From NCBI GenBank assembly GCA_017998385.1, contig JAGODE010000016.1:1-35241 (forward strand): DNA of 35,241 bases. The letters run 5' to 3'. Each line of letters starts with the position of its first letter. The first letter of the stretch is position 1. Of the stretch, positions 15,420 to 34,144 are shown one piece after another. A program made the position numbers and the translations under genes. Source of the stretch: Chitinophagaceae bacterium (GTDB lineage: Bacteria > Bacteroidota > Bacteroidia > Chitinophagales > Chitinophagaceae). The notes beneath the pieces are model-generated. The model saw only the letters and a list, made by a program, of their open reading frames with translations. It searched no databases and had not been told where the DNA came from.

Positions 15420-16937
15420 CTATAAGTTTCCCAAAATCCGCCTCAACGCTTCTTCGCTTTCAGCATTTTGAGGATTTATCTCCAGTGCTTTCCTGTACAT
15501 ATTAATAGCCTCCTCTTTGTACCCGTTTTTCATCAACGCCTCCCCATAGCTATCATATACATTATAGCTGAAAGGGAAAAGCAGGGTGTTTATCTTGAAC
15601 ACTTCAAGGGCAATTTGATGATGATTCTCAAAAGTGGCTTCATACAGCAATTGATAAGCCAGCAAATTCATTTGTCCTTCATCCATGTAATAATGTGCCG
15701 AGTCTGTCCTTAACTGAAACAGCCGGCAGAAGGCAGCATCCACCCCTCTTTTTACAAGACATGAACCGTAATCCTGTGTCAGCGATTTTTTCCGGGGAAA
15801 TACTGGCTGATGGTCAAGTATCCGCAGCGCGTTGACGCCGTTCTGATATATTCCTTCGCTGAAAGCATTATCCAACACAATCACGACCTGTCTTTGTGTG
15901 ATATTCCTTAGAAAAATAGCCACTGCACCTGGAACACCGCCCCCGTGCCACACTATTTTTCCAGCTGAGGTATCCGTAAAAATGAACCAGCCCAGGCCGT
16001 ACGATGCCTTACCGATACCAATATCTGCATTCACATTTTCACCATTGTTTAGTCGGGTGGGCGTAAATGCTTCTTCCAACGTAGCGACACTGATGAACTT
16101 GCCAGTATAAAGGGCCTGGTCAAAACTCAACATATCGCCTGCGCTTGTAATGATATTACCCTGACCAACAAATCCGCTAAGGTTATAGAGCCTCCAGCGA
16201 ACTTTTGGGATACCGCTTACCTCCTGTGGTTCGGATGCAAATAGCGTAGGATACTGGAAATTGCTCACCCTGTTTTTGTCTGACAGTTTCATTGTATCGG
16301 TAAGGAAGTAAGTGTCGCTCATTTTTGCCGGCCCGAAAATTTCTTTTTTCACATAGTCCTGGAAGCGCATTCGTGAAGCTTTTTCGACCAGGAGCGCCAG
16401 CAGGGAAAAATTGGTATTGGAGTACTGCCATTTTTCGCCCGGTTGAAAGTACAGCGGTTTCTCCCAAAGATTTAATGAAGGGAGAACATCTGTGTTGAAG
16501 AATACTTTATCGGGGTTTTCATCTACCAGTTTACCATAGAGCTCATAATCCGGAAGGCCGGAGGTATGAGACAGCAGGTGCCTGATGGTGATTTTGGGGT
16601 ACCGGAAAGCAGGCAAATATTTCACGAGTGGGTCGTCCAGCCTGAGCCTGCCCTTTTCCTTCAATTGCAGTACAGCGATCGATGTAAAGATTTTCGATAC
16701 GGAGCCGATTGAAAAACGGGAATCAGTTGCATTTGGCCTTTGGGCCGTAAAGTCGGCATACCCAAAAGATTGCCTGTATATGATATGTCCCTTTTCGGCT
16801 GCCAGCACATTCCCGTTTATCTGACCATGCCGGTAAAGAGATTGAAACAGACTGTCAAGCCGGCCTGCCCTATCTTCCTGTGCCGTTCCTTTAACATTTA
16901 CAACCAGCCAGAAAAGGATAAAAAGTATACCTTTCAT
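15420..16937 (-). CDS. Class C beta-lactamase-like serine hydrolase with C-terminal TPR
   Basis: 505 residues from the ATG at 16937. An in-frame TTG seven codons upstream is less likely because MKGILFILFWLVVNVKGTAQ is a clean signal peptide. Catalytic motifs of the PF00144 fold are complete: SVSK at 79-82 (nucleophile Ser79, Lys82), YSN at 172-174, and HGG at 331-333 in place of KTG. After the hydrolase domain (about 25-375) the tail from about 420 to 505 is TPR-like (YGEALMKNGYKEEAINMYRK, ALEINPQNAESEEAL). The family includes D-amino-acid peptidases, esterases and true beta-lactamases. Resistance cannot be inferred; peptidoglycan or peptide hydrolysis in the periplasm is plausible. It is divergent from the membrane winged-helix regulator at 17049, with phased repeats in between. 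Confidence 0.9.
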   Translation of the reverse strand: MKGILFILFWLVVNVKGTAQEDRAGRLDSLFQSLYRHGQINGNVLAAEKGHIIYRQSFGYADFTAQRPNATDSRFSIGSVSKIFTSIAVLQLKEKGRLRLDDPLVKYLPAFRYPKITIRHLLSHTSGLPDYELYGKLVDENPDKVFFNTDVLPSLNLWEKPLYFQPGEKWQYSNTNFSLLALLVEKASRMRFQDYVKKEIFGPAKMSDTYFLTDTMKLSDKNRVSNFQYPTLFASEPQEVSGIPKVRWRLYNLSGFVGQGNIITSAGDMLSFDQALYTGKFISVATLEEAFTPTRLNNGENVNADIGIGKASYGLGWFIFTDTSAGKIVWHGGGVPGAVAIFLRNITQRQVVIVLDNAFSEGIYQNGVNALRILDHQPVFPRKKSLTQDYGSCLVKRGVDAAFCRLFQLRTDSAHYYMDEGQMNLLAYQLLYEATFENHHQIALEVFKINTLLFPFSYNVYDSYGEALMKNGYKEEAINMYRKALEINPQNAESEEALRRILGNL

Positions 16938-16955: not shown

Positions 16956-16963
16956 CAAACATA
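16956..16963 (-). promoter_or_regulatory. Candidate -7 box of the TPR-tailed serine hydrolase gene
   Basis: On the minus strand TATGTTTG matches TAnnTTTG exactly. It ends 18 bases before the ATG at 16937. The phased repeats at 16978-17018 begin 15 bases upstream of it, overlapping the expected -33 region. Confidence 0.45.
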
Positions 16964-16977
16964 GAGCGGTCTGGTGC

Positions 16978-17018
16978 GCTTTCCGCTGAAGAATGCTTTG
17001 GAAAAGCTGAATAAAGCT
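16978..17018 (-). promoter_or_regulatory. Phased direct repeats, candidate operator of the winged-helix regulator
   Basis: Read on the minus strand, four units begin with AGC at intervals of 10, 11 and 10 bases: AGCTTTATTC, AGCTTTTCCAA, AGCATTCTTC, AGCGGAAAGC. One-turn spacing of direct repeats is how OmpR/PhoB-type winged helices bind. The word AGCTTTTCCAAA (16997-17008) recurs in the second module at 32027-32038, in the same direction relative to the hydrolase side. Confidence 0.5.
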
Positions 17019-17048
17019 TTAGATTAGTCCATAAAGCCCATCAAAACC

Positions 17049-17591
17049 ATGAAAGAAGGCCTATTTCAAATAAACGATCGTTTTGTGGTTGACCGCAGCA
17101 AAAACGAAGTGAGCGATAAAGAAACTAATCAGGCAAGCCGGCTTGAGCCCCGACTGATGAAATTGCTATGCCTGCTGGCGGACCGGTGCGGAGAAGTGGT
17201 AACACGGGATTATATAATAAAAGAGATATGGAACGACTATCCAGGTGCCAGTGAAGGACTCAACCAGGCCATCTCCTTTCTGCGAAAACAACTGGCCGAT
17301 GACAGCAAAACCATTATTAAAACCCTGCCCAAAGAAGGATATATCCTTCATGCCAGCATTTCATGGGCAATCGAAAAAAGGGAGCCTATCCGAAAAAACG
17401 ACAATAAATGGTCCAGACTGGTTGCCATTGCTGGTCTTTCGCTGGCATTTATTTTATTTATCTTTTATTACGCCGACAGAAAAAAAGCCAGCATATCGGA
17501 TACAGATTTGAAAATAAAAGAGGCTGCCGAAACGGCAAGGCTCGACTCCATTCACCAGGCTGAAAGACTTAAGCAGTTAAACGGAAAGTAG
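17049..17591 (+). CDS. ToxR/CadC-like membrane-anchored winged-helix regulator
   Basis: A 180-residue protein. Residues about 5-107 form an OmpR-type winged-helix DNA-binding domain: LEPRLMKLLCLLADRCGEVV, TRDYIIKEIWNDYPGASEGL, QAISFLRKQLADDSK and the wing TLPKEGYILHASI. A single transmembrane helix follows at about 124-141, and only about 40 residues, mostly helical and charged, extend to the periplasmic side. There is no receiver domain, so it resembles ToxR/CadC rather than a two-component regulator. It is divergent from the serine hydrolase gene. A clear paralogue lies at 31379-31960, also next to a serine hydrolase locus; both share WNDY, QAISFLRK and GYILHA blocks. The short outer tail suggests that sensing needs a partner protein. 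Confidence 0.9.
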   Translation: MKEGLFQINDRFVVDRSKNEVSDKETNQASRLEPRLMKLLCLLADRCGEVVTRDYIIKEIWNDYPGASEGLNQAISFLRKQLADDSKTIIKTLPKEGYILHASISWAIEKREPIRKNDNKWSRLVAIAGLSLAFILFIFYYADRKKASISDTDLKIKEAAETARLDSIHQAERLKQLNGK

Positions 17592-21650: not shown

Positions 21651-23090
21651 TTATTTTTCCAATTGCTGCCGGATATAATCTATCCATTTTGCAGGGTCTG
21701 TTTTGCTGAGGAGCACATCTGGTTTAAACCCTGTTTTGTCGATAGGGCTGCTGTCTGTCCAGCTTGATTTTACGATAGGGATGGCCAACCGGAATGCCGG
21801 AAAAGGCAGTGTGGTGGGTGAAGCGCCTTCATAATCCATCATCCCAAAGGTGTTTGACCCGTAGGTGACTGTTTTGGCACTTTTCTTAGAAAGAAAAAAG
21901 AAATACTCTGTAGAGCTTCCGCATAAGTTATCTACCACCAGCGCTATCTTTTTAGGATTTACTGTTATAGAATCGAGCGGAAACACAACGCCTGGTGCCG
22001 GATAAAATGCCGCGGTAGTAGTGGGCAATTCGGCATACGCTTTTTTGTAGCTATTAAGTATGGAATCGGGAAAATATTTCTGGTAATCGGGAGGTATCGG
22101 ATTTGTTACATACGGTTCTACATCTGCCAGTTTCAATTTTACATTTTCCGGCGATACTCTGACGTATCCGTTTTCCTGCATTACCGGGTTTGTCATAAAA
22201 TATCCGAGAAATGAGATCCAGCCCGTGCTGCCGCCGCCATTACCCGTCAGATCCACGATCAGGTTTTCGGTACTGCGGATGATAAAATCGTTGCGGGTTA
22301 TCAGGGCAGCGATCCGGTCATCATTGTTAGTAAAACTGGGGATCTTTAAAACCGCGGTTTTCTGAGATAACTTATAGAAATCGAGACCGTGGTTGCCGTT
22401 GCGCCATGTTTGCTGCTCCCTGAGTTCAGCAGCACTCATTGAAACCGGATATATTCTCCCAAACAACTCATCACTCCAGCCCTGTAAGAGATTGCCTTTT
22501 ATCTTAATGGGGTAGTCGGTTGACGATAAACCGTTATGATACTTTACTGTGAGGCCTCTTTTGCCTGCTGCGATAGTCATATATACGAGTCCTGGCTGTA
22601 TTTTCGGATTCTTTGACTCCAGAACAATAGCCTTGTATTCTTTATCCGGATACAAGAGTACAGCAACCTTTAAACTGCTATCCTGGTTGATCCAGATGCC
22701 TTCTGGCGGCGTGCCTCCTTTCTTCCTAAGTCTGTCTTTTGTCTCCTGCACTGACAAATTGATATATTCAGCATTTATGTCCTGTTCGTTGTAATACGAC
22801 AACTGAAAATGACTGTCGTAAAAAAATTTAACATACTCACGCAATACAGGGAAGCAGGTGACAGGCGTGTTGCTGACAACGGCTTTTTCTTTTAAGCGGG
22901 TTTTCAGTTGTTGGTAGGCCGCTTTTGTATCTGCGTTTACTTTGGCCGGAAAGCCCGCATAATTTAGTTCTGTCTTTGCGATCAGCGTATCTAAATTTTC
23001 GGAACAGTTGCAGGCGGGAGCCTGTGCATTTCCCTCAACAATCGCAGCAGCAAAAATGGATGCCAACAGCCATGTGCGATGAATAGCCAT
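21651..23090 (-). CDS. S41-family peptidase (C-terminal processing protease fold)
   Basis: A 479-residue exported protein with a signal peptide (about 1-23). The core has LIVDLTGNGGGSTGW at 277-291, a hallmark of S41/tail-specific proteases, and VVDNLCGSSTEYFFFL at 385-400, where Ser392 or Ser393 should be the nucleophile. The Lys of the dyad should follow about 25 residues later, but the segment there (KTVTYGSNTFGMMDY) has no obvious Lys at the classic distance, so catalysis may follow the tricorn-like arrangement. No PDZ domain is obvious. Two cysteines near the mature N-terminus (Cys27, Cys29) may form a disulfide or bind metal. It is convergent with the LytTR regulator and has no operon partner in view. 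Confidence 0.85.
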   Translation of the reverse strand: MAIHRTWLLASIFAAAIVEGNAQAPACNCSENLDTLIAKTELNYAGFPAKVNADTKAAYQQLKTRLKEKAVVSNTPVTCFPVLREYVKFFYDSHFQLSYYNEQDINAEYINLSVQETKDRLRKKGGTPPEGIWINQDSSLKVAVLLYPDKEYKAIVLESKNPKIQPGLVYMTIAAGKRGLTVKYHNGLSSTDYPIKIKGNLLQGWSDELFGRIYPVSMSAAELREQQTWRNGNHGLDFYKLSQKTAVLKIPSFTNNDDRIAALITRNDFIIRSTENLIVDLTGNGGGSTGWISFLGYFMTNPVMQENGYVRVSPENVKLKLADVEPYVTNPIPPDYQKYFPDSILNSYKKAYAELPTTTAAFYPAPGVVFPLDSITVNPKKIALVVDNLCGSSTEYFFFLSKKSAKTVTYGSNTFGMMDYEGASPTTLPFPAFRLAIPIVKSSWTDSSPIDKTGFKPDVLLSKTDPAKWIDYIRQQLEK

Positions 23091-29457: not shown

Positions 29458-29505
29458 ACAAGTACCCAGGCACCCAAAATGGCGGCTTTTGACACATGTT
29501 GGCGA

Positions 29506-29541
29506 AATATAAGTCAAAAATGGCTATTTTTGACTTATATT
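29506..29541. promoter_or_regulatory. Perfect 16-bp inverted repeat, candidate Fic operator
   Basis: AATATAAGTCAAAAAT (29506-29521) pairs perfectly with ATTTTTGACTTATATT (29526-29541) around GGCT. It ends 24 bases before the Fic ATG and includes a TTTTTGAC that could be a -33 region. A related imperfect copy (CAAAATGGCGGCTTTTGAC) lies at 29475-29493, about 40 bases upstream. The Fic protein has its own winged-helix tail, so autoregulation is a natural idea. Confidence 0.55.
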
Positions 29542-29565
29542 CTGCTTCATATAACCCAAAAAAAC

Positions 29566-30636
29566 ATGCCTTTACAGCCATTACCCATAGAGCAGGAGCT
29601 GGAAACCAGGGCCGTTTTAAAAAAACTTGCCCAGGCTCACCGGGCATTGGCAGAGTTAAAGGGCAGCATTACCAGCATACCGAACCAGTCAATTTTACTG
29701 GAAACACTTACTCTTCGGGAAGCCCGGGAAAGTTCCGCCATTGAAAATATCATCAGTACGTTTGATGAAGTATACCGGAGCAATTTGTTCAGCAACATTT
29801 TTGCCAGCCCCGCAGCCAAAGAAGTACACCAGTATGCCGCAGCATTAAAAAAAGGTTTTGAACTGGTGAAGCAACACCAGTTGCTTACCAACAATCATAT
29901 TCTTCAAATACAGGAAGTGGTGGAGCAAAACCAGGCGGGTTTTCGTAAACTGCCCGGCACCAAATTACTGAATGATAAAACCGGAGAAGTGATATATACC
30001 CCGCCACAGGAGTATGATACTGTTGTAAGCCTGATGAATAATTTGGAAGCTTTTATTAACGATGATGAAATGATGGATGTGGACCCATTAGTAAAAATGG
30101 CTATCATCCACCACCAGTTTGAAAGTATTCACCCCTTTTATGATGGCAACGGTCGCACCGGCCGCATTATTAATATTTTATACCTCGTGCAAAAAGGACT
30201 GCTACACCTGCCCGTTTTGTATTTGAGCCGTTATATCATTCAGCATAAAAATGATTATTACCGCTTGTTGCAAACAGTAAGGGATAATCAGCTATGGGAA
30301 GAATGGATTTTGTTTATGCTGGATGGTATAGAAAAAACAGCTACAGAAACAGTTTTGCTCATTGCCGCCATCAAAAGCCTGATGCAGCAGTATAAGCTGC
30401 AAATACGCAGTAATTATCCAAAACTATACAGCCAGGATTTGCTCAATAATTTGTTTAAATATCCTTATACCAAAATAGAGTTTTTGCAGGCGGATTTACG
30501 CATCAGCAGAAGTACCGCAATTCGCTATTTGGATACATTGGTAAAAGCCGGTATTCTAACCAAGCATAAAATTGGCAGAGATAATTTTTATTTGAACAAA
30601 GAGTTATTGGGGTTACTGACAATAGCAAACAACTGA
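29566..30636 (+). CDS. Fic-family protein with winged-helix C-terminus
   Basis: 357 residues from the ATG at 29566; a longer frame from 29479 would run through the perfect palindrome and is unlikely. The Fic motif HPFYDGNGRTGR (189-200) is complete, with the catalytic His and the GNGR phosphate loop, so nucleotidyl transfer (usually AMPylation) to a hydroxyl is expected. SSAIEN (56-61) fits the inhibitory-helix motif (S/T)xxxE(G/N), here placed N-terminal to the Fic core (class II), with Glu60 blocking ATP. About 290-350 is a winged-helix-like region (KIEFLQADLRISRSTAIRYL, AGILTKHKIGRDNFYL). The target is unknown. No antitoxin gene is adjacent, consistent with built-in inhibition. Confidence 0.92.
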   Translation: MPLQPLPIEQELETRAVLKKLAQAHRALAELKGSITSIPNQSILLETLTLREARESSAIENIISTFDEVYRSNLFSNIFASPAAKEVHQYAAALKKGFELVKQHQLLTNNHILQIQEVVEQNQAGFRKLPGTKLLNDKTGEVIYTPPQEYDTVVSLMNNLEAFINDDEMMDVDPLVKMAIIHHQFESIHPFYDGNGRTGRIINILYLVQKGLLHLPVLYLSRYIIQHKNDYYRLLQTVRDNQLWEEWILFMLDGIEKTATETVLLIAAIKSLMQQYKLQIRSNYPKLYSQDLLNNLFKYPYTKIEFLQADLRISRSTAIRYLDTLVKAGILTKHKIGRDNFYLNKELLGLLTIANN

Positions 30637-31378: not shown

Positions 31379-31960
31379 CTAGCGCGCACCACCCCTTAGA
31401 GTGTCCTGTTGCTTCGGTAAATCAGGCCGGAGATCAGGGTTTCCTGAGCGGATGGTATCTTCTACACCGGAATTATCCCGATCGGGATATAAGATGTCTG
31501 GCGATTGTGGTTTTTCTCTTTTAATAAAGAGCCATAGGATACTGCATGCCAAAACCACGAGCAAAGCAATAACTGTATATTTTTTTCTTTTGGGCGGCCC
31601 GGTCTTCTTTTTATGCTCTTCAGGCGCTTCATCGCTTGGAGCGGCATAGGTAATGTCTGCATGAAGTATATACCCCTTTTTAGGAACCGTTTCTATCAGC
31701 GTTCGATCGGTATCATTTAAAAGCTTACGCAAAAAGGAAATTGCCTGTGTAAGCGCCTCGTCTCCGCCGCCGTAATCATTCCAGACTTCTTTAATCAGCC
31801 TGTCGCGGCTCACCACTTCATTGGGATGACCGGCCAGTAATGCCAGTACTCTTATCAGCCGTTGCTCAACCTTGCCGCCAGTGCTGGTTTGTTTATCAGA
31901 AATGGTATCCCTTGTTGTGTCTACAATATACCGGTTTGCGATGATGAATACTCTCTGCAT
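31379..31960 (-). CDS. ToxR/CadC-like membrane-anchored winged-helix regulator (second copy)
   Basis: A 193-residue paralogue of the protein at 17049-17591. The winged helix spans about 3-105, with VEQRLIRVLALLAGHPNEVV, SRDRLIKEVWNDYGGGDEAL, QAISFLRKLLNDTDR and TVPKKGYILHADI. Then come a basic, proline-containing linker (EEHKKKTGPPKRKK), one membrane helix at about 128-146 and a 45-residue hydrophilic outer tail. No receiver domain is present. It is divergent from the small lipoprotein gene at 32107 and the serine hydrolase at 32678, just as the first copy is divergent from a serine hydrolase. The outer tail differs in sequence from the first copy, so input signals may differ while DNA targets overlap. 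Confidence 0.9.
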   Translation of the reverse strand: MQRVFIIANRYIVDTTRDTISDKQTSTGGKVEQRLIRVLALLAGHPNEVVSRDRLIKEVWNDYGGGDEALTQAISFLRKLLNDTDRTLIETVPKKGYILHADITYAAPSDEAPEEHKKKTGPPKRKKYTVIALLVVLACSILWLFIKREKPQSPDILYPDRDNSGVEDTIRSGNPDLRPDLPKQQDTLRGGAR

Positions 31961-32026
31961 GTGATGACCTGTTTCGTATAAAAGTAAATAAATATCAGTT
32001 TTTCAACTGTTTACAAGAATAAATAA

Positions 32027-32047
32027 AGCTTTTCCAAACCTTTTCCC
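32027..32047 (+). promoter_or_regulatory. Phased direct repeats matching the operator of the first module
   Basis: AGCTTTTCCAA (32027-32037) is followed directly by ACCTTTTCCC (32038-32047), so two related units are phased at 11 bases. AGCTTTTCCAAA is identical to the word at 16997-17008 (minus strand) in the first module, and ATAAAGCTTT at 32023-32032 also recurs there (17011-17020). Confidence 0.5.
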
Positions 32048-32106: not shown

Positions 32107-32652
32107 ATGAAAAAAGAAATGCTGTTTATTCCCCTCCTGGCATTTTTGGCAGTGATGCCGGCATGCACCAGGGCACAAAACCCTGTCAGTAAACCAGGGA
32201 CCGACCATGCTGAACCTGCACTAAACGGGCAGAAAAATACACCGCCCAAAAATCACTTCAATACGGCCACTACAAAAATCGCCGGTAAGGAGTGCAGCCT
32301 TACACTTATCGGCGATATGCTGCCGGATTTTTCAGTGGATGGCAGGAAGGTGTCAACGTCCGATTTTGATGATTATGCCAGCGAAATAGACAGCCTGTCG
32401 CATATAATATGGGAAAGGCAAAGAAAGGAGGCCCAACGCCGGGAAGCTGCCATAGCCAAAATCAAACAGCAGATTTTAGGCGAACTGGTATCTGCAAAAC
32501 ATATTACGACCCAATCGCAGGTGCATTCCTTTTACCTCAGCAGCGAGGCATTTTTCATCAATAACAAACAGCAAAGCCCCGAAGTGTTTGCTTACTTCAA
32601 AAAAAAATATCTGAAAAGTGAGGATAAGGCTTTCTATTACGAAAACAGGTAA
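32107..32652 (+). CDS. Small lipoprotein resembling the C-terminal domain of BlaR1/M56 proteins
   Basis: 182 residues from the ATG at 32107; an in-frame ATG at 32077 lies upstream of the -7 box and is unlikely. The N-terminus MKKEMLFIPLLAFLAVMPAC is lipoprotein-like with Cys20. A proline/asparagine-rich linker follows. The last 60 residues (EAAIAKIKQQILGELVSAKH, then FYLSSEAFFINNKQQSPEVF, then FKKKYLKSED) resemble the short domain that, as I recall, ends Bacteroidota BlaR1/MecR1-type M56 membrane proteins, where a helix is followed by FxLxxxxxxxNxKxQxxxVF. Here that domain is free-standing, next to a penicillin-recognising-type hydrolase and a membrane regulator, so it may be the periplasmic partner in sensing. 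The first module has no such gene. Confidence 0.7.
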   Translation: MKKEMLFIPLLAFLAVMPACTRAQNPVSKPGTDHAEPALNGQKNTPPKNHFNTATTKIAGKECSLTLIGDMLPDFSVDGRKVSTSDFDDYASEIDSLSHIIWERQRKEAQRREAAIAKIKQQILGELVSAKHITTQSQVHSFYLSSEAFFINNKQQSPEVFAYFKKKYLKSEDKAFYYENR

Positions 32653-32677: not shown

Positions 32678-34144
32678 ATGAAAAAATATGTTGTTTCTGC
32701 TTTCCTATTGAGTACGCTGATCAGTAGCGGGCAGTCCGGAAAAGTTTTTACCCGAGATATCCAGACAAAGATCAACCAGGTAGAAAACAACCTTATCGCC
32801 TGGGTAAAACTCGACAGCTCTAAGAACTGGAATATATATGACCGTATGAGGGATTTACATATCAACGGCGTGAGCATTGCTGTGATTAATGATTACAAAA
32901 TCGAGTGGGTCAAATCTTATGGCTGGGCCGATACTGCTCAAAAAGTGCCGGTAACCAACAATACTTTATTCCAGATTGCGTCTATTGGTAAAACGTTGAA
33001 TGCATTCGGACAAATGATACTTGTACAAAATGGTAAAATAAATCCTGATCTTGATATTAATCAGTACCTCACCCGGTGGAAGTTTCCGTACGATTCTTTA
33101 TCGAAAGGCAAGAAGATCACCCTTGCCAACCTGCTAAGTCATACGGCCGGCTTATCTGTACACGGGTTTGACGGTTATGCCTGGAACCATCGTTTACCCA
33201 CCCTTATTCAAACAATAAATGGCGAACCGCCTGCCAATAATCCGCCTGTACGTTCTTTGTTTGAGCCGGGCATTAAATCGGAATACTCCGGCGGGGGAAT
33301 TATGATTTCGCAAGCAATGCTGGAAGATGTAACCGGGATGGATTACGGCGAATACATGAAAAAAAATGTTTTTCTGCCGCTTGGCATGAAACACACTTCT
33401 TTTTCGACCGATCCGATTTACAAAAATTTTGCAACCGGCTACCGGTTCGACGGGTTAGATATGGGAGGAAAATATATGAAGTTTTCCGAACAGGCCTGCG
33501 GAGGTGCTGCATGGTCAACCGCCAGTGATCTTGCAAAATTCGTTATAGAAGTGCAGCTGTCTTTAAAAGGAAAATCCAATAAAGTATTAAAAAAAGAAAC
33601 GGTTGAGAAAATGCTTTCTCCCTATTTAAAAGAGACCAATGTTGCACTTGGCTGTTTCATAGACAACAAAAGAGGTGAACTGTATTTTCAGCACAGTGGA
33701 TTGAATCCGGGTTACAGCAGTCAGTACTACGGCTCTCTTGAAGGAGGAAAAGGTGTAGTAGTGCTCGCAAATGGCGATATGACGGATTTTAAGGATGAGG
33801 TTGTAAATGCAGTTGCCACCGTGTACGGGTGGAAAAATTTTTACGATTATGCCCCAAAGAAAATTGTTTCACTACCACCCGATTCTTTAAAGAAATATGT
33901 GGGTATTTATAAGTTTGAGCATTCCGAAACCGGACCTACTATCAGCTACGAAAACGGTCAGCTCTATCTACAGAATCCGAATTCAACCAGCAAATGGCAG
34001 ATTTATTTTACCAGTAGCCAGGATTGTTTTATGCTGGAAGCCAGGTGGTGCAATCAACGATTTTTTATGGCCGAAAATAAGGTGGGCGGTTTTACAATTA
34101 CTACCGGTACTTACACCGACAGGGCGCTGAAAGTTTCGGACTGA
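32678..34144 (+). CDS. Class C beta-lactamase-like serine hydrolase (second copy)
   Basis: 488 residues from the ATG at 32678, 25 bases after the lipoprotein stop. An earlier in-frame ATG at 32618 would overlap that gene and bury the signal peptide (MKKYVVSAFLLSTLISSGQS). Catalytic motifs: SIGK at 102-105 (Ser102, Lys105), YSG at 203-205 where many relatives have YxN, and HSG at 339-341. From about 405 to 488 is a strand-rich domain (KKYVGIYKFEHSETG start) typical of the C-terminal lipocalin-like domain of these hydrolases, in place of the TPR tail seen in the copy at 15420-16937. Periplasmic peptide or ester hydrolysis is expected; the substrate is unknown. It is the last gene of its operon, followed by a strong terminator. 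Confidence 0.9.
   Translation: MKKYVVSAFLLSTLISSGQSGKVFTRDIQTKINQVENNLIAWVKLDSSKNWNIYDRMRDLHINGVSIAVINDYKIEWVKSYGWADTAQKVPVTNNTLFQIASIGKTLNAFGQMILVQNGKINPDLDINQYLTRWKFPYDSLSKGKKITLANLLSHTAGLSVHGFDGYAWNHRLPTLIQTINGEPPANNPPVRSLFEPGIKSEYSGGGIMISQAMLEDVTGMDYGEYMKKNVFLPLGMKHTSFSTDPIYKNFATGYRFDGLDMGGKYMKFSEQACGGAAWSTASDLAKFVIEVQLSLKGKSNKVLKKETVEKMLSPYLKETNVALGCFIDNKRGELYFQHSGLNPGYSSQYYGSLEGGKGVVVLANGDMTDFKDEVVNAVATVYGWKNFYDYAPKKIVSLPPDSLKKYVGIYKFEHSETGPTISYENGQLYLQNPNSTSKWQIYFTSSQDCFMLEARWCNQRFFMAENKVGGFTITTGTYTDRALKVSD

What the first reader, a model, noticed from the sequence alone, without database searches (positions are those of the whole stretch)
32023..32047. The same operator word occurs in the second module's divergent promoter region
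AGCTTTTCCAAA at 32027-32038 equals the reverse complement of 16997-17008, so in both cases it reads toward the hydrolase side. A second related unit follows after 11 bp. ATAAAGCTTT is also shared. Two regions 15 kb apart sharing a 12-mer at the same relative place suggests cross-regulation by the paralogues.
Basis: seen in the sequence. Interest (0 to 1): 0.58.

Follow-up and report, generated by a model that had tools for sequence, protein, structure and literature searches.

The report
Shared switch of paired membrane regulators
The repeated DNA word lies in an 11-base tandem repeat that probably binds a small family of membrane-anchored gene switches, each sitting between its own gene and a neighbouring gene for an exported enzyme; it marks a regulator family, and does not by itself show that the two switches control each other.

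Summary
The word is real and not chance. AGCTTTTCCAAA occurs exactly twice in the 4.82-Mb genome, both times here. It is the junction of two units of an 11-bp tandem repeat, GAAAASSTTTR read toward the regulator. The repeat lies between a ToxR/CadC-like membrane regulator gene and a divergent exported-enzyme gene. A third paralogue in the genome carries the same array. A profile built only from other genera still ranks the three arrays first in the genome, the module-1 array weakly. Similar arrays precede most relatives found in Chitinophagaceae, Hymenobacteraceae, Flavobacteriaceae and Spirosomataceae. The array starts 26-27 bp upstream of the -7 element of the divergent gene in 12 of 21 non-redundant loci (shuffles: mean 0.39, maximum 3). 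It lies one turn further (38 bp) in module 2. I read it as the regulator's own operator, placed to activate the divergent gene. Cross-regulation is possible, but nothing here supports it specifically: arrays within a genome are no more alike than between genomes. In module 2 the first gene on the hydrolase side is an exported protein whose first domain resembles the periplasmic tail of related regulators. New variant of a known kind. Nothing was tested at the bench.

The parts
32024..32045 (-). Module-2 array, two 11-bp units: 32035-32045 GAAAAGGTTTG and 32024-32034 GAAAAGCTTTA (read toward the regulator)
   Evidence: Zero-mismatch match to GAAAASSTTTR x2; profile hits with and without own-genus training
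16990..17021 (+). Module-1 array, three units: AGAATGCTTTG, GAAAAGCTGA (10 bp), ATAAAGCTTTA
   Evidence: profile E 1.8e-4 when in the training set, 0.125 when left out, still third in the genome
32084..32091 (+). Putative -7 element TAGTTTTG of the divergent operon, 38 bp from the array
   Evidence: 8/8 to TAnnTTTG
31979..31986 (-). Putative -7 element TACTTTTA of regulator 2, 37 bp from the array
   Evidence: 7/8 to TAnnTTTG
16956..16963 (-). Putative -7 element TATGTTTG of hydrolase 1, 26 bp from the array
   Evidence: 8/8 to TAnnTTTG
17020..17027 (+). Putative -7 element TAGATTAG of regulator 1; overlaps the array by 2 bp
   Evidence: 7/8 to TAnnTTTG
17049..17591 (+). Regulator 1 (P0001, 180 aa): winged helix, one apparent membrane span, short C-terminal tail
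   Evidence: Pfam Trans_reg_C 3.8e-14; membrane span read by eye
31379..31960 (-). Regulator 2 (P0002, 193 aa): same architecture
   Evidence: Pfam Trans_reg_C 1e-15; ToxR structures by sequence, E 1.7e-14; membrane span read by eye
15420..16937 (-). Hydrolase 1: beta-lactamase-fold serine hydrolase with C-terminal TPR
   Evidence: Pfam Beta-lactamase 1.6e-59; start by ORF reading
32107..32652 (+). Exported 181-aa protein: D1 (about res 43-107) like the periplasmic tail of related regulators, then D2 (about 109-181)
   Evidence: no Pfam family above cut-off
32678..34144 (+). Hydrolase 2: beta-lactamase-fold serine hydrolase
   Evidence: Pfam Beta-lactamase 3.2e-50; 27% identity over 190 aa to hydrolase 1

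Best explanation
The word is part of an operator made of head-to-tail 11-bp units, bound by the membrane-anchored winged-helix regulator encoded next to it. Two or three winged-helix domains would sit in tandem on one face of the DNA. The array lies about -40 (module 1) or -51 (module 2) from the predicted start of the divergent exported-enzyme transcript, where an activator touches RNA polymerase; no -33 TTG was found there, which fits a promoter that needs help. In module 2 and several relatives the array is also at an activating distance from the regulator's own -7 (two-way activation); in module 1 it overlaps that element (self-limiting). Each paralogue carries the same kind of operator because the family does. 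Shown: array, position, conservation, spacing. Inferred: who binds it, activation, autoregulation.
For: The only two exact copies in the genome are these two promoters. All 6 hits with 0-1 mismatch to the two-unit pattern in 24 genomes lie upstream of family regulators. Of 20 loci not used to define the unit, 12 beat all but at most 10 of 500 shuffles. Spacing to the divergent -7: 26-27 bp in 12 of 21 non-redundant loci, shuffles mean 0.39, maximum 3 in 2000 runs; 38 bp in two more, including module 2. Regulator-side -7 at 26-27 or 37-39 bp in 14 of 24 loci. No TTG in the 12 bp next to the array in 23 of 23 divergent promoters. Profile scans put the three regulator arrays first in the own genome. 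Winged helix like ToxR/CadC.
Against: No binding or expression data. Eight of 20 loci did not beat the shuffles clearly (L024, L026, L031, L019, L036, L051, L052, L056), some of them remote homologues. Three further remote homologues found later (L152-L154) have no full array. The 10- and 22-bp spacings and the 26-27-bp gap were noticed before they were tested. Left out of training, the module-1 array scores only E 0.125, weaker than one hit (0.101) in G002, where no regulator was found. In module 1 and its relatives the array overlaps the regulator's putative -7, which suits repression of that gene.
Confidence: 0.75

Rival explanations
1. Cross-regulation: the paralogues bind each other's operators and form one network, and the shared 12-mer is kept for that reason.
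For: Same 12-mer in register in both arrays; recognition helix nearly identical (SEGLNQAISFLRK and DEALTQAISFLRK).
Against: Within-genome arrays are not more alike than between-clade arrays; the 12-mer is not kept in the G001 module-1 orthologue; no module 2 was found in G001; the third paralogue uses different central bases (GG/CC/GG).
Confidence: 0.2
2. Mainly a repressor site: the regulator shuts both promoters until a periplasmic signal releases it.
For: In module 1 and its relatives the array overlaps the putative -7 of the regulator gene (-2, -3 or -8 bp).
Against: On the enzyme side the array never overlaps the best-spaced -7 and sits at a fixed activating distance; no -33 TTG.
Confidence: 0.2
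3. Site of an unrelated global regulator or a structural element.
For: AT-rich and quasi-palindromic unit; binder not identified.
Against: The best profile matches in the own genome are the three regulator promoters, and the next match lies inside a coding frame.
Confidence: 0.06
4. Chance sharing of an AT-rich 12-mer.
For: About 0.6 exact hits are expected per genome on uniform base composition (own arithmetic); the reversed control also has 2.
Against: Both hits fall in the same relative place and in register with a family-wide array.
Confidence: 0.02

Closest known systems
ToxR / CadC-like transmembrane transcription regulators
   Same: N-terminal OmpR-type winged helix, then an apparent membrane span; ToxR also uses a direct repeat (tox-box TNAAA-N5-TNAAA, PMC8517210, passages seen).
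   Different: Short C-terminal tail without a recognisable sensor domain; divergent exported enzyme; 11-bp units with a different sequence; best NCBIfam match (CadC) far below its cut-off. CadC sites are described as head-to-head (PMC5430869, passages).
PhoB/OmpR-type tandem operators (recalled; CadC-PhoB similarity in passages of PMC5430869)
   Same: Direct repeats at 11 bp next to a promoter lacking its upstream element.
   Different: No receiver domain or phosphorylation; membrane-anchored; Bacteroidota -7 type promoter.
ToxR/ToxS and TcpP/TcpH co-component pairs (listings; recalled)
   Same: Membrane regulator with a separately encoded exported partner (module 2).
   Different: Partner is divergent, not an operon mate, and its domain resembles tails of sibling regulators; interaction untested.

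Membership tests
ToxR/CadC-like transmembrane transcription regulators | N-terminal OmpR-type winged-helix DNA-binding domain | tested here: met
   Pfam Trans_reg_C above cut-off for both regulators; ToxR chains E 1.7e-14, CadC 7.4e-11 for P0002
ToxR/CadC-like transmembrane transcription regulators | One membrane span after the DNA-binding domain | tested here: inconclusive
   A hydrophobic stretch is plain to the eye in both; no topology program was run
ToxR/CadC-like transmembrane transcription regulators | C-terminal periplasmic sensor domain | tested here: not met
   P0001 and P0002 end about 40-50 aa after the span; some relatives (L020, L022, L025, L028) have longer tails
CadC proper (NCBIfam NF007540) | Score above the family cut-off | tested here: not met
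   65 and 71 bits against a cut-off of 400
OmpR/PhoB-type tandem operators | Direct repeats about one helical turn apart | tested here: met
   11 bp in module 2, 11 and 10 bp in module 1
OmpR/PhoB-type tandem operators | Bound by the regulator | not testable with these tools
   Needs footprinting
Bacteroidota sigma-A promoters | -7 element TAnnTTTG | tested here: met
   8/8 for both divergent promoters, 7/8 for both regulators; consensus and its position -12 to -5 from passages of PMC9723704
Bacteroidota sigma-A promoters | -33 TTG (recalled) | tested here: not met
   None in the 12 bp next to the array in 23 of 23 divergent promoters

The most novel reading that the evidence does not exclude
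Module 2 is a split sensor. The regulator lacks a sensing domain, and a domain that sibling regulators carry in their own periplasmic tail is instead secreted from the divergent gene, under the same operator, where it could act as a detachable sensor or feedback ligand controlling a cell-surface serine hydrolase. The same domain also resembles part of M56/BlaR1-like peptidases.
Probability: 0.25. Interest if true: 0.65.

Novelty: new variant of a known kind. Interest (0 to 1): 0.42.

Why it matters
Few operators of membrane-bound regulators in Bacteroidota seem to be described: searches of the open library listed no account of this family, which is no proof that none exists. A short, phase-locked operator that predicts regulator, target and direction makes the circuit directly testable, and the moving sensor domain offers a way to ask how membrane-bound one-component regulators gain or lose their sensors.

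Tried and rejected
Single-unit composite pattern (-7, gap, one unit): 86 of 394 genomes, no better than the reversed control; dropped as unspecific. Extra candidate sites: C328 lies inside a TonB-receptor-like frame; the C147 and G001 pair lie inside a coding frame. Wider regulon: not seen in the own genome at profile level, within the limits of the tool's first look (150 candidates scored per genome). Cross-regulation signature by array similarity: none. Class-level search for more members: 3 of 395 genomes, the only new one being G735 with three remote loci without full arrays. Before counting I dropped L038 (Vibrio) and, as duplicates of named loci, L044-L049; L016, L034 and L030 were dropped as near-duplicates in three of the four tests. 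In one search the script placed the L024 array one unit early (gap 16; 27 if placed at -70).

Paper searches: titles and abstract starts seen. Passages seen of PMC10269533, PMC9723704, PMC8517210 and PMC5430869; no paper read whole.

Full report
Observation. The 12-mer is at the stated places and has exactly two copies in the 4.82-Mb genome, both in this window. The reversed control also has two, so rarity alone proves little; the placement does. Read toward the regulator, the word is TTTGGAAAAGCT, the junction between two units of an 11-bp repeat, GAAAASSTTTR. Module 2 has two perfect units (32024-32045). Module 1 has three looser ones spaced 11 and 10 bp (16990-17021). The shared ATAAAGCTTT is inverted relative to the gene pair and out of register, hence incidental.

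Genes. Both regulators have an OmpR-type winged helix, nearest by sequence among solved structures to ToxR and CadC for P0002, followed by a hydrophobic stretch and a short tail. They lie divergent to exported genes: a beta-lactamase-fold hydrolase in module 1, and a 181-aa exported protein followed by such a hydrolase in module 2. The two hydrolases are only 27% identical over 190 aa and the regulators 48% over the matched stretch, so this is no recent duplication. A third paralogue (contig C37) lies divergent to an exported 260-aa protein without a Pfam match.

Family. A profile of nine regulators finds the family in 14 of 394 genomes of the host's family and 3 of 395 drawn from the class; a scan of named genomes gave 23 loci, one of them Vibrio. 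Of 24 loci whose arrays were examined, by reading: 13 have a serine-hydrolase-like divergent gene, 6 the 260-aa exported protein, 1 an S41 peptidase, 1 a sulfatase-modifying-factor-like protein, 1 (module 2) the exported protein then hydrolase, and 2 none found. Pfam confirmed beta-lactamase fold in 6 of 6 of the relatives' hydrolases tested, S41 in L025, FGE-sulfatase in L035, and no family for 2 of 2 of the 260-aa proteins. The tree separates modules 1 and 3 into supported clades; module 2 is a long branch of unsure place.

Array. The unit was defined on nine loci. In 20 other loci the best unit pair beat all but at most 10 of 500 dinucleotide shuffles in 12, and all 500 in 7; in 8 it did not. 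The allowed spacings 10, 11 and 22 were chosen after those sequences had been seen. A five-locus clade (L020, L024, L026, L029, L030) and L028 use a variant with the second good unit two turns away. In 24 genomes all six hits with 0-1 mismatch are upstream of family regulators, and 3 of 11 with two mismatches; at three mismatches hits resemble background. A profile including own-genus arrays gives E 1.3e-5, 1.7e-5 and 1.8e-4 for the three own arrays, next 0.43, inside a coding frame. A profile without the genus still ranks them first to third (0.0013, 0.0048, 0.125; next 0.77), but a hit in G002, where no regulator was found, reaches 0.101.

Geometry. The Bacteroidota -7 element TAnnTTTG (position -12 to -5; PMC9723704, passages) of the divergent gene lies 26-27 bp from the array edge in 15 of 24 loci and 38 bp in 2, module 2 among them. 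After removing three near-duplicates, 12 of 21 lie at 26-27 bp against a shuffle mean of 0.39 and maximum of 3 in 2000 runs. The gap was noticed before it was tested. None of 23 divergent promoters has TTG in the 12 bp next to the array. On the regulator side a -7 candidate lies at 26-27 bp in 6 loci and 37-39 bp in 8, and overlaps the array in the module-1 group. The spacings differ by one helical turn, as expected of an activator touching polymerase. Activation itself is inferred.

Cross-regulation. Junction 12-mers are identical in 9 of 222 between-clade pairs; within-genome pairs (5) share 18-22 of 33 positions against a mean of 18.5 (sd 3.1). There is thus no sign of co-evolution within a genome. 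Recognition helices share QAISFLRK, so cross-binding stays possible.

Split sensor. The 181-aa protein's first domain matches the periplasmic tails of regulators L028 (33% over 64 aa, E 3e-9 in a 26-sequence set), L025 and L022, and its second domain matches secreted coiled-coil-like proteins and an M56-like peptidase. E-values from such tiny sets are rough. L022 and L028 pair directly with a beta-lactamase-fold hydrolase that resembles hydrolase 2 by eye. Among 244 family genomes only the host has the full-length protein; 14 others match only part of it, mostly D2. That the protein senses anything is conjecture.

Noticed in passing
window 32107-32652: Exported protein with a domain resembling the periplasmic tails of sibling regulators, plus a second domain found in secreted coiled-coil-like proteins and an M56-like peptidase.
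   Followed up: partly
L003 2018-2800 (G000 contig C37) and L023, L032, L033, L034, L037: A 260-aa exported protein without a Pfam match is the divergent partner of a clade of these regulators.
   Followed up: partly
L027 (JADCRZ010000032.1): Record titled Williamsia (Actinomycetota MAG) carries a Bacteroidota-type regulator and array; probably a mis-binned contig.
   Followed up: no
L154 and L025: Regulators divergent to S41-type peptidases (L154 by eye); the window also holds an S41 peptidase at 21651-23090.
   Followed up: no
L019: Family member directly downstream of another gene, without divergent partner and without array.
   Followed up: no
window 29479-30636: SoFic-type Fic protein (adenylyltransferase-like) upstream of module 2.
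   Followed up: no
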